From positions 186,001 through 250,000 of the forward strand of contig VWRR01000004.1 in assembly GCA_013995675.1 (NCBI GenBank): a stretch of 64,000 nucleotides of DNA. Reading direction: 5' to 3'. The stretch is from Cyanidiococcus yangmingshanensis. Taxonomy: Eukaryota; Rhodophyta; Bangiophyceae; Cyanidiales; Cyanidiaceae. Under the pieces are notes generated by a model. It worked only from the letters and a program-made list of their open reading frames with translations, had not been told where the DNA came from and did not search any database. The translations under genes were made by a program, and so were the position numbers. This document shows, piece after piece, positions 15,161 to 23,862 of the stretch (within the stretch, counting starts at the first letter, position 1; each line of letters starts with the position of its first letter).

Positions 15161-15827
15161 TCCGACTTGGCCAACGCCTAGCAACAGCGACCCAAGCACA
15201 ACAATAGAAACTCTATATAATTACAGACCGTGCAGAACCAGCAAGCGAAAGACCCATACGAAGACAAAACTGCGCTTGAAAAACGGTGAGACCTCGCAGC
15301 GTGACGTGAGCCCAAACCCGGCTCTTTAAGCTTGTTTCCGCAAGTTACGCTGCCTTCAGAAAACCAGGCAACTCGGAGGTGCGTCGAACTCGGCTCTATG
15401 AAAACATATTTGAAGCGGATAGTGTTCAATAAAGCGGTCTCTACGCGGAACTTGCAGATACGCACGTGAGCAGTGCATGCGGCCCGGAAAACGAGCAGGG
15501 GCGGTTTCTCCCATGGCACCATCCAGTCCAGTTTCATCCCTATGAGTCTATTTATAAACAATTTTGTACCATTCTGTGCGTCCATGCGTGTTCGGCCGCG
15601 ATCCCGACTGCAACGGGTCTGAAACGTGCTCGATGAGCACAACATTCGCCCTACATCATTTCGTTGTTGTTGTTGTTGTTGCTCGGACGCGCTCGAGAAA
15701 GCCAGCCCAGTCAAGGGATAGATTTGTATCGTGTTTGACTCGTGTTTTTGACTTCTTAAAAGTAGCGTTCAGCGAGGAAACTCCAAGTGCTGTGAGGTAC
15801 ACAGAAAACGGTGTCCGACCATTCAGT
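15161..15827. other. Divergent intergenic region with a (GTT)n microsatellite
   Basis: Holds the promoters of the cyclase gene and the Nab3-like gene. A GTT/TTG trinucleotide tract (six to seven units) lies at about 15662-15681, roughly 150 bases before the plus-strand start, so probably in or near its 5' UTR. Confidence 0.55.
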
Positions 15828-18246
15828 ATGCCACGCACGCGTCGCCAACTCGCGCAAGTCGATGATGGTGAGGATCAAGCTTCCCAAGTCCGAGATGCCG
15901 CTGAGGTGAATGTCCACAAGGACGACCAGAACACCACTGATACACCAGAGCTGCCAACGACACCGCAACCAGGAGCTGTCGATCTGATGCCGGAACGGCC
16001 AACGTCGTTTTCGTCCGTTGCAGAGTCCCAGGGCGACGCCTTGGTGCCCGCTGCACGCGTGTCCGTCGAATTCGCCGCCGAGGCGCTGTCCAAGAAGGAC
16101 AAGGGGCAGGCACTGACTGGGCAAGTCGTGGCCTCAGTTTCGTTTGCTGAGCAGTCGTTGGGCAACGACACCGCAACAAGCGCGACAGCTAGCCCGCCAT
16201 TGTCCCATGCCGATCACATGGATACGAAGGCTGTGAAGCCAGCGGGGGACGTCCAGGTTGACGCATCGTCGAAGACGTTAGGGCCGACGCCTGAACACGA
16301 AACCAGCTCCTCGCAGACGATGAGTATGCCGACGATTCCAAACACAGCAGATGATGACATCAAGGCTGACCATGCCTCGACTTGTTCGGATCTTCAAGCG
16401 CCCCAACAAGCCGAACAGGACCAGCGCTGGCTTGGCGATACACAAGAACGGTCGCCGGTCCCGCCGCCCGCCGCTGACGACGATGACGACGATGACGACA
16501 TCAAGGAAGGCGAGGACGAGAGCACTGACCACGGTGACTTGTTGGACGATGATAACCTTCCGCCAGTAGTTCGGCGCAAGCGTCTCAAGCTTGCTTCAGC
16601 AGATTCAGATGAAGCGACTAGTGTCCCGACACAGACGACCAACGCTGAACTTGTCGCATCCGAGGCGGAAGCATCGATCGAGTCGCTGGTGAGCACCATT
16701 CCGCGCCGCACCAAGACGGTTGGGCCCTCGGCGGAAGCTGCCTCAACATCGCGCGACCCGCAGGATCAGGAGCACGCGGATCACTCCGACGAGCATCCTC
16801 AAGACGCAGACCCAATCTCGGAGGCGAAGGAAGGGCTCGATGACGAACAGCCTGTGACCTCTGCACCACCGTCAGAAGGGGTCAGCGAATCATGGAGTCC
16901 TGCAGAACAAGACGACTCCGATAAACTCCGTCCAGCCATGAGTCTCAAGGAAGCGGCCGAGTATTTGCAAACGCTGCCTCGACGTCACCCTGAGAGCACC
17001 AATGATGCTCGTTTGTTCATTGGGAACTTGGCATCCGAGAGCACCAGCCAAGTAGAATTATTAAGCATTTTCTCCAAGTACGGACGTATTATGGAACAAC
17101 CGCTCATGCTCCGCTCGTACGCTTTTATCCAATATGATTGTCCTGAATCGACACAGCTTGCGATTCGCTACGAACAGGGACGTCTGATTGGCGGTCGACA
17201 TCTGGACCTCAGTGTGGCCTCTGGCCGTCGAGGAAGCGGCTCCAGCAGCAACGCCAATGCCAACGACAGTCATCATCTCGGTAGCGCTGGATCTGGACCA
17301 GAGGGCAAAAGAGCTGCTTCCAACCAGGGTATGAATCGGAGAAAACGCGATGCAAGCACCATGGACATGGGCGGTCCGCGTCCACCTCCCAGACCAGGCG
17401 CTCCTTACGTACGCATTCTGGTCATCGGGACAACGTCCCGTCCAATGGCCCATGCCATGCAGAATGTGATTCGTAGTCTCGGCATCTCCACCGATGTGGC
17501 GTACATTTTTTCCACCCATTTGGGGACTGCCCTCAAAGAGGCGTATGCGCAGTGCGTTCGTTACATGATTGTGGTGACCAGCAAAGATGCATCCAAAGGC
17601 GCTTGTTCGTTGCGTACTTACGAAAAGACTGGTTACGAACATGCCGGTGGTGGTAACATCATGCCCTTCCATGAAGCACTCGCGATCATTTTCCGCGAGG
17701 AGCGCATCAACCTGCCGGTGCCTCCTGCTGCCTACACGGTGGCTGCTGCTGCTGCTGCCGCCACCACCACCATGTCTCTCCCGTCAGCCGGTGGTGGTGA
17801 TGCCACCAACATGCCCACTACATTGCCCGGCGCGGCGCCAGGTATGACGTCCGCACCCGCCACAATAGCCGCAACGACACCATATGGGTACCCGAACCCC
17901 ATGGTTTCCGCGCCTGGTCCGATGCCCTACCCGTTTGCATCGATGCCACCCGGTTATCTGTATGGTCCGCCGCCACCGTCGGCACCAAACGCCTCCGCTG
18001 GTGTATCCGTTCAGCGTGGTTATCATCCGGGGTACATGGCTGGACTGCCACCGGCTGGCATTCAATCCACCGATGATGCATCCTCAGCATACACAGGTTT
18101 CTGGGAACGCCTCGTACGCTCCAAGCCAGGGGTCTGCGGCGCCGCCAGGAGCAGATATGAACCAAGTCAAGCAGCTGCTTGCCACGTTGCAACAGTTCCA
18201 GCAGCGGAATGCTTCTGCTAGAAATAGCGGTGGTAACCCTCTGTAA
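15828..18246 (+). CDS. Nab3-like nuclear RNA-binding protein (RRM plus NCOA5-type domain)
   Basis: Start at 15828 (MPRTRRQLAQVDDGEDQ), as upstream in-frame sequence is UTR-like. An acidic, disordered N-terminus with a D/E run precedes one RRM (RLFIGNLASES, then a degenerate RNP1 around YAFIQYDCPESTQLAI, ending GGRHLDLSVASGRR). Next is a domain starting YVRILVIGTTSRPMAHAMQN with an anticodon-binding-like alternation of strands and helices, then Ala and Pro/Gly/Met-rich segments. The frame shifts near 18057 (one extra G), after which the tail reads FNPPMMHPQHTQVSGNASYA and ends with MNQVKQLLATLQQFQQRN. Acidic N-terminus, RRM and a Q-rich helical tail are the layout of yeast Nab3, a partner in Nrd1-dependent transcription termination. 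Orthology is inference; NCOA5-like proteins are the alternative. Confidence 0.62.
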
Positions 18247-19029: not shown

Positions 19030-19926
19030 GTTTACCAACTTCGATGACGGCAGGGTACCGACACGAAACGGAACGTGCTGCTTACGATGAGCTCCTCCGC
19101 CACCAGGTGCGTCCTTTTGCCACTACATCCAATCGACTTGGATAGTTTGGAATCAATCTACGCATCTGATTATGGCTGCGGAGTATGTCGCGTGGTTGGA
19201 GCGAGCTCTCGAGGCCAAGTTCGCTACTGCGTTGCGTTGGATCGGTCTGCTCTCGAGCACGAGCCTCTACGCGGAGGCACCAGACGCTTGGCTTGATGAA
19301 AGCGCTCCGTTGGACTTGTCCAAAGAGAAAATGGCTGGACTCTGGCGAGCCGAAGTGCGCACAGCAGAGCTTGCTCGCACCTTGGGTATCCAGCTCGCTG
19401 TATTTCGTTTGGGAGCAGTTTACGGCCCGATTCCAGCTGGTATGCGTGGTCGACGTGGATGGACCCGTCGCAGTGTGCTGGACACCCTACCCGATGATAG
19501 AAAACATGGCGAAGAGAGCAATGCTTCCAGGTCGGCCGTTGAACAAGCTAGTGAATCGAATTCATGTGGGTGATGCAGCCCACCTGTTGCTAGCCGGACT
19601 CGGCCGTGGCATCCAAGGCGTCTATAATCTGGTGGACGACGAGCCAGCAACACGTTCCCTAGTAGAGGCTTATGCAAAACAATGTCAGGCAAATGAGCGA
19701 TCAACGAGAGCGTATACAAACTGGGACTGCTGCTCGCTTGAGACAGGTCCCTGGGGCAAGCGAGCTCATCCAAGGCGGCAAACGAATTTGCAACAACAGC
19801 GCAAAGATGGAACTACTTGGTGGCCGCTCGACATTGTGGTTCCCCAGTTATCGCGATGGTATCCAGGCGATCGCAGCAGGCGACTCTTTTCCGTTTCTCC
19901 CAGAGCAAAACTTTCAAGACGGATAG
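19030..19926 (+). CDS. Second YeeZ-like SDR protein, split by four +1 shifts
   Basis: Homology to the family of the gene at 2155 passes through four frame changes: AYDELLRHQ then CVLLPLHPIDLDSLESIYAS, then YVAWLERALEAKFATALRWI and GLLSSTSLYAEAPDAWLDES and AVFRLGAVYGP, then NRIHVGDAAHLLLAGLGRG and YNLVDDEPATRS, then IQGGKRICNNSAKMELLGG and FPSYRDGIQAI. The changes near 19110, 19163, 19487 and 19729 are each repaired by removing one base from a GG, GG, CCC or GGG run. The last third (NRIHV.D, NLVDDEP, GKR..N) is typical of YeeZ-type epimerase-like proteins. The N-terminal glycine motif is not resolved, so the start is approximate and may lie near 18.8 kb. It could be a true pseudogene, but the uniform shift type argues for consensus error. 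Confidence 0.6.
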
Positions 19927-21631
19927 AATTTCGTCATCCTTGGTCATGCTTTTTTTATCATCATCACCATCGGGACGATCGAAGAGGCGGTCGACTGACG
20001 AAGACAAGTGGATGCAGCGACCTGCAATGCCAGCGCTGTGCTCGACTTTGACAACCATCTACCAAGTTGATGATGCGAAGAAGTCATGAATGCCAGCAGA
20101 GACGTAGTGCGAGGAGGCCGCTCGCAACGCGATGCGTACACAACATCGCGTCTGTTCGTTGTCTCAATGGTAGCGTTTGGAGCCGACCTCGAGTTCCCAC
20201 ATCCATTGAGAGCAAGCTTTTAGAATCCAGTTAGCAAGCGTCATGCTAGCGTCGATGCAAACACATTGTCGTGTGTCGATCAGCCCGTAATCCGCTTGCA
20301 AGAATAAATCATGAACACGAGTCAACGGTGCGTCGTTATTTTGGGCAGCGTCACCGCGTTACAAGTGTTCAACAGTTCTTCGCAGACCAATTTGTCTTTA
20401 GATGGTCTCAGAGTCACCTTCCTGACACGTCGGAAGTGATCAAAAACAGCAACATTGGTATCGCTCTGGATCAGGATGCAGATCCGTAATGACCTGCAGC
20501 GTCTCGGGCAGTTCCTCATATCTGGAGCTTGTCGTCGCCGCAACTGGCACCTTGCGCGATCACTGACTTTATCCAAGATGGCTGGAGTTTAATCGGGGGA
20601 AGCTGGTGTACTCAGCAGGCTGTTGATGCCACTAAAAACAGGCTCGCTCTTATGATGATCCCGTCTCAGAACTGTACAACGACCTGTCTGTAGATTCTGT
20701 GTAGGCGTTAGCGTAGCATTTGACTCGTGCACAAATGGCAGCAATCACGTTACCATCAAGTTGCTCGTTGAATGACTTGCATCCCACCAGGAATTCATGT
20801 TGATTGAATAACCCGGTCAATGCTGCTGAGAAACCCGAGACTGGATTTGGGGAGCGCTTTTCAGCAGGTTTTAAGAAGCTGTGCGTTTCAGTGTCCGCTC
20901 AGAGAGACTGGCCGCCAGATCGAGCATGAACCTGAATTGTGTCGAATAGAGCTCCGAGATCCCAGCAGCAGCATAGACTCATGAAACGAACAAGAGGCAG
21001 TTTGGGGTCGCCAACAGGTCCACGCAAATGTTTTCGTCGCATAAAGTCAGCAACCATAAGAGAATGAAATCCACATTCAGCATATATGTCTTGGCATGGG
21101 CGTTGATATTCAGTACGCTCGTCAACCATTCTACAAGGTGCCTGGGTCGTGTGGCCTTCAAGAAGGGTCCCATAAAGTTTGCGGATACGGACGAGTCGCC
21201 CATGCGATGTATGCGAGAGTCACTCGAACTCGAACCCTGAAATAGGAAAATTAGCGGTTCATCCAGCCTGCCCGCTACTAATTGAGCAGCCACTCTTTGA
21301 ACTTGAGACATCAAGTCGCTGTTGGTCAAGAGCTGCCTTGAGTTATTCTTTGTACAGAACTCTATGAAAACTGCGCACAGCACAGAAAGCTTGACTGGGC
21401 TGCTGTATCGCCTGCAACGCCGGTTCGATTCCTTTCCTGAGAGCCACTCAAACCTTAACCTTCCTCTTGAGACAAGTTATATTCAGATCATCGCTGTTGG
21501 ACGAGAGCAGACGCGAACGCAAACGCCCAACCCGCTGCTCTACGAACGTTCACGGTGGTTGTCGGCAACAGGGGCGAGCTGCAGCCGTACACTCGGTTTC
21601 GGTTTGCGACGTTGGCTGGGTCTGTCGCCCC
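19927..21631. other. ~1.7 kb without a recognised gene; one weak minus-strand frame
   Basis: The best candidate is a minus-strand frame at 20979-21311 (MSQVQRVAAQLVAGRLDEPL, with a hydrophobic segment NVDFILLWLLTLC), about 110 aa, of unknown family and uncertain reality. No RNA gene, repeat or mobile element was seen in the rest. Confidence 0.35.
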
Positions 21632-23862
21632 ATGGCCACCATAGCGCCTCCGTCTCGTTTCGGAACCAGGTTGTTCGTCGATTACAACCAGTTAGCAATC
21701 GAAGAAAACAAGTGGGTGCGAAACATCCCGTCCGCTGCCACGGAACGGAAGTTGTCGTCGCAGGTAGCGGTCTTGAGCCTCGAGTCGGGTCCGAGTCAAA
21801 CCCTGCTCGGTCAGCGAGGATGCGAAGCAACAAGTTCGAGTGCAACGTTACTCCCATGCGCACTAGAGCAACAAAAATCGGCTATCGGGTTTCTAGGACA
21901 CTGACTTGTCAAGTGCTGTGTCGTTACGAGTCATCCTGATTGAGTCGCCGAACGTGTTTCGGGGAAAAGCGCTACAAACGAAGCGTGCTCGGCTGGCTGC
22001 TCTCGAGAAGCAGTTCGCGTCCGTATGGAATCGAGCACAAGATCAATTTAGGCCGAAAACAATCAAATATTTCTCGGCTGCGTTGGTCCTCGAACATGAT
22101 ACCGCCGACGCGTATCCAGCGTTGCGGCCGTGTCTCGGACCATCTGCAAATCAACAAGCTGCTCTTTTGGTTGGGCCTCGAGCGGTCTCTCAACCACCTT
22201 GGGATACTGCGGAGCACCCTGTCCTGCTTCCGAGGCCAATACAGGTGTCGTCTGCAGTTGCCAGTTCCGAACAACTGCCGTCTGCAGAACAAGACGAGCA
22301 AGGAGCTGCCGAGTCTCTGACTCCTCCAGTGTCCGAACAACGTCATGGCGAAGGACGTTCATCCTCGCGTTGTACAGCACTTGCCTGCGTTGTGTAGCTC
22401 AGCGGTACGACAGAGTGCGGAAACCGGGACGATGGATTCCAAAATACCTCATTTGGGGTTGCAATCCATTCATTTTGTCGTCCGAATGCGACGAAAACGT
22501 TCATCGCCGCATTGAAGCAACCTCAGACCGCTGGAGCCTCTTTGTCATCGGCAATGCAACGGAACTGGGATCATGGAACCTGAATGTCGCTCGAAAGCTG
22601 GAGTTCTCTGCACAAGAGCGCGTTTTTCGTACGACGGTTCCGTTGTTTTCCACAGCAAGCGGCACACCAACAGGCCATCCGCTACGTCTATTTCTTCTTG
22701 GACGATCGCCTGAATGATCGCTGCGCAACCGGGATCTTTTTTGAAACAGCAGAGCGAGCGGCCTACCTCGCTCGTAATTCTGACCAGACTTCAGATGATT
22801 TGTTGCTGTCGCCGAACCCAGAAACTGGGCTGGACTCGCCACGCTCGCCAGCTGTTTACCCGCGACTGCACTCGCTCTTCTCTGCAGATGCCACGAAAGT
22901 AGTCCATGTTCACGATTGCATCTATGCGGTGCAGAGCCCCGGCGGCCGTGTTCGTTTCCGAGTACGTGTCGTAGAGCCGTCAAAAGAATCAACAACCGAG
23001 CGGATTGCGAGGAAACTTTACATCACGGGTGATGTGTATCAGTTGGGATTATGGACACAACCGGGTCCTTTTACCGCTGCAGCCGTCGCCCTCCGAGCCA
23101 AATATTTGGGAACTGAGCATTGCACGACCGCCGTGGGACAATGTCGAGTATATTTTCGCGGTGGACGCTGGAACCGGTGCTGGTATTCAATACGAGCGCG
23201 CGGTCACTCGCTTTAGGGAGCTCGTCGTCGATGACTCAAGCGAGGTTGACTGCTGTGCCACTTGGGAGGATGAGGTTTATCTGCCGAGTCGCGTGCCTAG
23301 CTGGGCCATCAAGGGCCTCTCCGCTCTCCCGGCAATCACGGTCGGTCCATTCATTCCCGCGGCTGAACTGGGAGCCGGTCTCACCGCTGTCGCTGGGATC
23401 ACGGGTCGATCCCTGGGTCTGGTTATCGTCTTTTTACCCCATGAGCGCTATCACTGCACGAGCCCAACTGAACGAGAACAGCTCCAGACAAATGCGTCAC
23501 GGCTGGGCGTTCACTTGCTCCCATTATCGTTGCAGAGCAATCGACTCTTGACAACAGTCGACTGGGTGCTCGCTCCAGAGGTTTTGATCTCGCCAGCGGA
23601 ACGCGAGGCATTGGTGAAGGCGATGGTTCTCGCAGAGGCCGTGCTGCGCCGTGGAAGCGCTGTTTACCTCACCAGTGCTGGTAGCTTTCGCGTTTTGGCG
23701 ACCTTCTTGGCAGCACTATGGCATCGAGTGACCTCTGTTGGTCAAGATGAATCAACGGAACGATTTCATGACTTATTGGACGGGGTACAGAGAGAGATGG
23801 GTCTTGTTGGCTTAGCGAGCTACTCCCTGTGGCGTTTTCTAGTGCGTGTCGCGCTTCGATGA
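21632..23862 (+). CDS. Laforin-like protein: two CBM20 domains plus a degenerate phosphatase domain
   Basis: Starts at ATG 21632 (MATIAPPSRFGTRLFVDYNQ) and is read through five +1 steps near 21893, 22337, 22510, 22645 and 23067, each consistent with one extra G or C. Predicted length is about 740 aa. After an N-terminal region of ~250 residues comes one CBM20 (IHFVVRM..., LFVIGNATELGSWNLN, YVYFFLDDRLND) and a second (KLYITGDVYQLGLWTQP, IWELSIARPPWDNVEYIFAV). A C-terminal domain resembles dual-specificity phosphatases: AITVGPFIPAAELGAGL..., HLLPLSLQSN, then VLRRGSAVYLTSAGSFRVLA. The P-loop HCxxGxxR is LTSAGSFR (23668-23691), so the catalytic Cys is Thr. It is expected to bind cytosolic floridean starch without cleaving phosphate. 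Red algal laforin is the nearest known relative by layout. Confidence 0.68.

What the first reader, a model, noticed from the sequence alone, without database searches (positions are those of the whole stretch)
21632..23862. Glucan-binding pseudophosphatase: double CBM20 fused to a phosphatase fold without its catalytic cysteine
Two CBM20-type domains precede a domain that aligns with dual-specificity phosphatases of the laforin/SEX4 group, but the HCxxGxxR loop reads LTSAGSFR: His is Leu and the nucleophilic Cys is Thr, while Ala-Gly and the Arg are kept. The loop itself lies well inside one uninterrupted frame, so base-call errors do not easily explain it. Plants have a starch-bound, non-catalytic relative (LSF1) acting as a scaffold; a red algal counterpart with two starch-binding modules would be an independent case.
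Basis: partly seen in the sequence, partly recalled or inferred. Interest (0 to 1): 0.75.

Follow-up and report, generated by a model that had tools for sequence, protein, structure and literature searches.

The report
Laforin-like dead phosphatase in alga
A gene in a hot-spring red alga encodes a protein with two starch-binding-type modules joined to a phosphatase-shaped domain that has lost its catalytic cysteine, and relatives keep the same altered loop, which suggests a dead enzyme retained for another job, probably in starch handling.

Summary
The gene (21632-23862) is not one frame here: five +1 shifts break it. Homologue P0001 (740 aa, 684 of 735 identical) is unbroken, and most frame changes seen elsewhere in this assembly are also +1, so assembly error is likeliest; decay in this strain is not excluded.

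Three relatives all keep TSAGSYR, in one of the protein's most conserved stretches. All 40 proteins found with a same-genome paralogue of the same layout keep HCxxGxxR.

The phosphatase fold is remote. Pfam misses it. Global profile alignment beats 200 of 200 shuffles, and an AlphaFold model, made with laforins in the alignment, matches PTP/DSP structures.

Glucan binding is less sure than claimed: each CBM20 keeps one of three contact residues.

Best reading: a conserved laforin-type pseudophosphatase, perhaps a starch adaptor. It recalls plant LSF1, but LSF1 keeps Cys. Function is inferred.

The parts
21632..23862 (+). Whole pseudophosphatase gene, broken in this assembly by five +1 shifts (near 21893, 22332, 22483, 22655, 23064)
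   Evidence: Frameshift-aware alignment to unbroken homologue P0001: 684 of 735 identical, no stops
21632..22127 (+). N-terminal region without known family (P0001 residues 1-165); present in P0004, not in the P0002 sequence held
   Evidence: 61 of 163 identical P0001-P0004; no Pfam match at E <= 1
22465..22760 (+). First CBM20-type domain (about P0001 residues 278-375); keeps 1 of 3 laforin glucan-contact residues
   Evidence: Pfam PF00686, two stretches on P0001; residues
22947..23229 (+). Second CBM20-type domain (about P0001 residues 438-530); first Trp kept, Lys is Ile/Thr, second Trp is Tyr
   Evidence: Pfam best stretch 454-520 of P0001
23320..23859 (+). Phosphatase-fold (DSP-like) domain, P0001 residues 561-740
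   Evidence: hhalign global 23.8 against 40 laforin-set DSP regions, 0 of 200 shuffles as high; AF2 model and structural matches
23671..23691 (+). Degenerate P loop TSAGSFR (T-X5-R) in place of CTAGMGR; Thr codon ACC at 23671-23673
   Evidence: Direct sequence; TSAGS[YF]R in 4 of 4 including the window's own protein, HC..G..R in 40 of 40 laforin-set proteins
23452..23475 (+). HCTSPTER, a C-X5-R string outside the P-loop position, after the second strand; Cys is Gly in P0002
   Evidence: alignment and model topology

Best explanation
A conserved pseudophosphatase of laforin type: an N-terminal region of unknown kind, two CBM20-type modules, then a DSP-fold domain whose nucleophilic Cys is Thr while the loop's Ala-Gly and Arg are held fixed. 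Shown: the residues, their conservation in three relatives, and the matching layout of an intact laforin paralogue in the same genome. Well supported but remote: the DSP fold, and hence loss of Cys-based catalysis. Inferred: the T-X5-R loop still binds a phosphate group (on floridean starch or on a phosphoprotein) without cleaving it, and the protein acts as an adaptor at starch, placing or regulating degrading enzymes such as the single beta-amylase, or competing with active laforin.
Against: Pfam finds no DSPc. A laforin-DSP HMM does not lift the domain out of the shuffle tail: 2 of 2000 shuffles beat the best real sequence (P0004, 5.3 bits), 6 beat P0002. hhalign's own probability is only 12-24%. 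Local mode: 0 of 100, 0 of 400 but 1 of 200 on the trimmed domain; 1 of 81 real pieces scored higher, over 9 columns. In global mode 0 of 225 real pieces reach 23.8 (maximum 13.8), but those are single sequences against a 4-row profile; as single sequences P0002 scores 15.8 (above all 225), P0001 11.6 (2 of 225 higher) and P0004 1.5 (below their mean of 3.1). The AF2 model had 38 laforin-set rows; the 3-orthologue model failed (pLDDT 32). CBM20 contacts are partly lost. No data on expression, binding or location.
Confidence: 0.65

Rival explanations
1. A decaying pseudogene in this strain: the five frameshifts are real and the product is lost here, although relatives keep an unbroken gene.
For: Five frame changes in 2.2 kb, against 26 found in 86.9 kb of coding sequence in 19 control loci. 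The paralogue and beta-amylase genes are unbroken. The published assembly of this species (20 chromosomes, 12.0 Mb, strain 8.1.23 F7) was corrected with short reads (PMC9812998, section 23 and passages); if the window is from that one, residual errors are less expected.
Against: All five are +1, with no stop codon and 684 of 735 residues as in P0001. The same +1 excess appears in the control loci (23 of 26) and in the window (8 of 10), as long-read insertion error would give (an unvalidated script that caught 1 of the 5 here, so its rates are low bounds). The genome held bears F1559 locus tags, and I could not tell whether it is the corrected assembly.
Confidence: 0.17
2. Still an active phosphatase, using the other C-X5-R string HCTSPTER (23452-23475) as its catalytic loop.
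For: HCTSPTER fits H-C-X5-R and follows a predicted strand.
Against: Cys is Gly in P0002 (HGTSPMER), Pro sits where the loop Gly should be, and alignment and model place it after strand 2, not at the P loop.
Confidence: 0.04
3. The C-terminal domain is not a phosphatase fold; it is an unrelated alpha/beta domain that happens to hold AG..R.
For: No Pfam DSPc match, HMM score in the shuffle tail, orthologue-only model failed, P0004 alone gives no global signal, very long tree branch.
Against: Global profile score far above 200 shuffles; same domain order as the paralogue; strand-helix order of a DSP and PTP-superfamily structural matches.
Confidence: 0.12
4. A pseudophosphatase that no longer binds glucan: the CBM20 modules have turned to protein binding and the role lies outside starch metabolism.
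For: Two of three glucan-contact residues are lost in CBM20-1; in CBM20-2 Lys is lost and Trp is Tyr. By the same motifs the paralogue's CBM20-1 keeps all three (sequence).
Against: The first Trp is kept in both modules in 3 of 3 relatives, CBM20-2 keeps an aromatic at the second Trp, and a red algal SEX4/laforin has CBM20 copies lacking such residues too (PMC8703398 passages).
Confidence: 0.25

Closest known systems
Laforin, red algal type (CBM20-CBM20-DSP)
   Same: Two CBM20 modules before a DSP-fold domain; an intact copy lies in the same genome (P0005)
   Different: Laforin-set proteins keep HC..G..R in 40 of 40; here the Cys is Thr, one residue fewer lies before the loop, Pfam sees no DSPc, and there is an extra N-terminal region
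LSF1 (LIKE SEX FOUR1) of plants
   Same: Starch-related phosphatase relative without detectable activity, proposed scaffold (PMC8968401 passages)
   Different: LSF1 keeps Cys (VTCTTGFDR, 8j5d_D); it has PDZ and BAM1/MDH interaction regions (PMC12892837 passages), not tandem CBM20 in front
STYX and other DSP pseudophosphatases
   Same: DSP fold with the catalytic Cys replaced and the loop Arg kept (STYX details recalled; STYX structure 2r0b is among the relatives of P0005)
   Different: STYX is a signalling protein without carbohydrate modules (recalled); here Thr, behind CBM20 modules
SEX4 / LSF2 glucan phosphatases
   Same: DSP fold acting on starch
   Different: Catalytic; SEX4 has its carbohydrate module after the DSP (recalled)

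Membership tests
Laforin (catalytic glucan phosphatase) | CBM20 module(s) before a DSP domain | tested here: met
   CBM20 twice by Pfam on P0001; DSP-like domain
Laforin (catalytic glucan phosphatase) | HCxxGxxR catalytic loop with Cys | tested here: not met
   TSAGS[YF]R in 4 of 4, HC..G..R in 0 of 4
Laforin (catalytic glucan phosphatase) | Pfam DSPc above cut-off | tested here: not met
   0 of 3 orthologues; the paralogue scores 75.9 bits, cut-off 33.5
Laforin (catalytic glucan phosphatase) | General-acid Asp of the D loop | tested here: inconclusive
   Aligned column is Asp in the window, P0001 and P0002 but Glu in P0004, and only after an 8-residue insertion
DSP-fold pseudophosphatase | PTP/DSP fold | tested here: met
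   Model pLDDT 75 and PDB matches; caveat: 38 laforin-set rows in the alignment
DSP-fold pseudophosphatase | Catalytic Cys replaced, in conserved fashion | tested here: met
   Thr in the window and 3 of 3 relatives
DSP-fold pseudophosphatase | No phosphatase activity | not testable with these tools
   Needs purified protein
LSF1 | PDZ domain before the DSP | tested here: not met
   Two CBM20 lie before the DSP-like domain and Pfam lists no PDZ at E <= 1 on P0001, P0002, P0004; a very divergent PDZ in the N-terminal region is not excluded
LSF1 | Binds beta-amylase at starch | not testable with these tools
   One beta-amylase gene is present; interaction unknown
CBM20 | Pfam PF00686 above cut-off | tested here: met
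   P0001 48.1, P0002 48.1, P0004 40.6 bits, cut-off 23.3
CBM20 with the laforin glucan site | Trp, Lys and Trp contact residues | tested here: not met
   CBM20-1 1 of 3; CBM20-2 1 of 3 with Tyr at the second Trp (mapped by motif, not by structure)

The most novel reading that the evidence does not exclude
A laforin duplicate in red algae became a non-catalytic reader of phosphorylated starch: a T-X5-R loop that grips the phosphate ester but cannot cleave it, marking granule regions for beta-amylase or shielding them from laforin. It would be a starch pseudophosphatase that arose independently of plant LSF1.
Probability: 0.25. Interest if true: 0.7.

Novelty: new variant of a known kind. Interest (0 to 1): 0.5.

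Why it matters
Whether laforin matters for cleaving phosphate or for bringing partners to the polymer is under debate (PMC12834914 abstract). A conserved natural Cys-less protein of laforin layout beside an active-type one, in an algal group described as genetically tractable (PMC13353863, title and abstract start in a listing), would let the binding role be tested apart from catalysis. If it binds starch, plants and red algae each made a starch pseudophosphatase.

Tried and rejected
Orthologue-only AlphaFold model (3 rows) failed, pLDDT 32. A laforin-DSP HMM on the domain alone did not beat all shuffles. The CBM20-2 test for descent from laforin was inconclusive: of the genome's other CBM20 domains, L003 and L006 score above all three pseudo CBM20-2 domains and L007, L008 and L002 below. 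Tree: the pseudo group is 100/100 but on a very long branch with a midpoint root, so the duplication cannot be dated or placed. Pfam found no family in pieces of the neighbour at 19172-20051. The second protein search, with an alignment, returned only the same three proteins. ORF coverage of the window is like that of control loci and did not single it out. HCTSPTER as a catalytic loop was considered and set aside. Introns as the cause of the frame changes were set aside since each change is one base. Cyanidioschyzon merolae and Galdieria could not be tested: no protein with those names was listed, and the hosts of P0001, P0002 and P0004 are unnamed, so that they are Cyanidiales is inferred from likeness.

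What I saw of papers: passages of PMC11986951, PMC2714694, PMC8968401, PMC9812998 (section 23), PMC12892837, PMC8703398; outline and abstract of PMC12834914 and PMC9844227; the rest as listings. 'Not in print' rests on searches only, of open-licence papers; Schreier 2019, Comparot-Moss 2010 and Kuchtova 2018 were not held.

Changed after a check of the calls: pseudogene odds raised from 0.12 to 0.17 (section 23 of PMC9812998 reports short-read correction), and not-a-phosphatase-fold from 0.10 to 0.12 (single-sequence scores).

Full report
What is there. The window is part of a 12.07 Mb, 20-contig genome. Its paralogue gene is identical to a record named Cyanidiococcus yangmingshanensis F1559_004884 (P0005). 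The finding's loop is real: ACC (Thr) at 23671-23673 inside L-T-S-A-G-S-F-R. ACC to a Cys codon takes two bases.

Is the gene whole? Not in this assembly. Aligning the DNA to it needs five +1 bases and one extra codon, meets no stop, and matches 684 of 735 residues. A home-made frame model, trained on 25 long ORFs of the control loci and not otherwise validated, finds +1 changes in excess in 19 control loci (23 of 26 changes in 86.9 kb coding) and in the window (8 of 10 in 32.5 kb); it detects one of the five in this gene, so its rates are low bounds. I read this as assembly insertion errors. Against that, the published assembly of this species was corrected with short reads (PMC9812998 section 23), and I cannot tell whether the genome held is that one. 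Real decay in this strain is not excluded.

Is the change conserved? Yes. To the hand-joined query P0001, P0002 and P0004 are 90%, 57% and 48% identical; the fourth listed protein, P0003, is the window's own. All three read TSAGSYR. In their alignment residues 675-693 have 16 of 19 invariant positions, against 75 of 179 for the domain and 45 of 100 for each CBM20; the highest 19-residue window, 17, lies in CBM20-2. By contrast 40 of 40 proteins retrieved with the active-type paralogue keep HC..G..R; 4 of them have no CBM20 annotation, so not all are laforins in the strict sense. Such constraint on a loop that cannot do Cys chemistry points to a retained binding role.

Relation to laforin. The same genome has an intact CBM20-CBM20-DSPc protein with HCTAGMGR, the natural active counterpart. 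Descent from a laforin duplication is likely from domain order and alignment, but the tree cannot place it and the CBM20 test was inconclusive.

Does it bind starch? Uncertain. PMC8703398 (passages) names Trp32, Lys87 and Trp99 of human laforin as glucan contacts. By motif, CBM20-1 here keeps the first only; CBM20-2 keeps the first, has Ile/Thr for Lys and Tyr for the second Trp. CBM20 copies of a Neoporphyra SEX4/laforin also lack Lys and the second Trp.

How it may work. Cys-based catalysis is very unlikely. The loop keeps the X5-R spacing and Arg, so phosphate binding is possible (inference). A laforin Cys-to-Ser mutant binds phosphate, long glucan chains and partners more strongly; the same abstract also finds that laforin's activity does matter in mice (PMC12834914). 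[quoted passage not shown] LSF1 has no detectable activity but is needed for normal starch breakdown and binds BAM1 (PMC8968401 passages). By analogy I propose an adaptor or phosphate reader at floridean starch; the one beta-amylase gene found is a candidate partner. This last step is untested.

Novelty. Pseudophosphatases and LSF1 are known; a conserved Cys-less protein of laforin layout was not seen in my paper searches, which cover open-licence papers and were mostly seen as listings. I rate it a new variant of a known kind.

Noticed in passing
window 19172-20051: A likely epimerase/SDR-type gene (recalled resemblance) seems split between two overlapping frames (ORFs 19172-19573 and 19185-20051), again a +1 type change; Pfam found no family in the pieces.
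   Followed up: partly
window 15564-18221: Long ORF with RRM_1 (32.5 bits) and an HGTP_anticodon match just over its cut-off (21.4 against 21); by eye its last part may continue in another frame (ORF 17884-18246).
   Followed up: partly
L011 1480-2802 minus strand (G000:C1; CBM20 and DSP matches at 705220-706314): Intact double-CBM20 laforin of the same genome, named in NCBI only hypothetical protein F1559_004884.
   Followed up: yes
window 21632-22127 (P0001 residues 1-165): N-terminal region of unknown family, 61 of 163 identical between P0001 and P0004, no Pfam match.
   Followed up: no
control loci L017-L035 of G000: Apparent excess of single-base insertions in coding frames (23 of 26 changes are +1), which may have broken other gene models.
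   Followed up: partly
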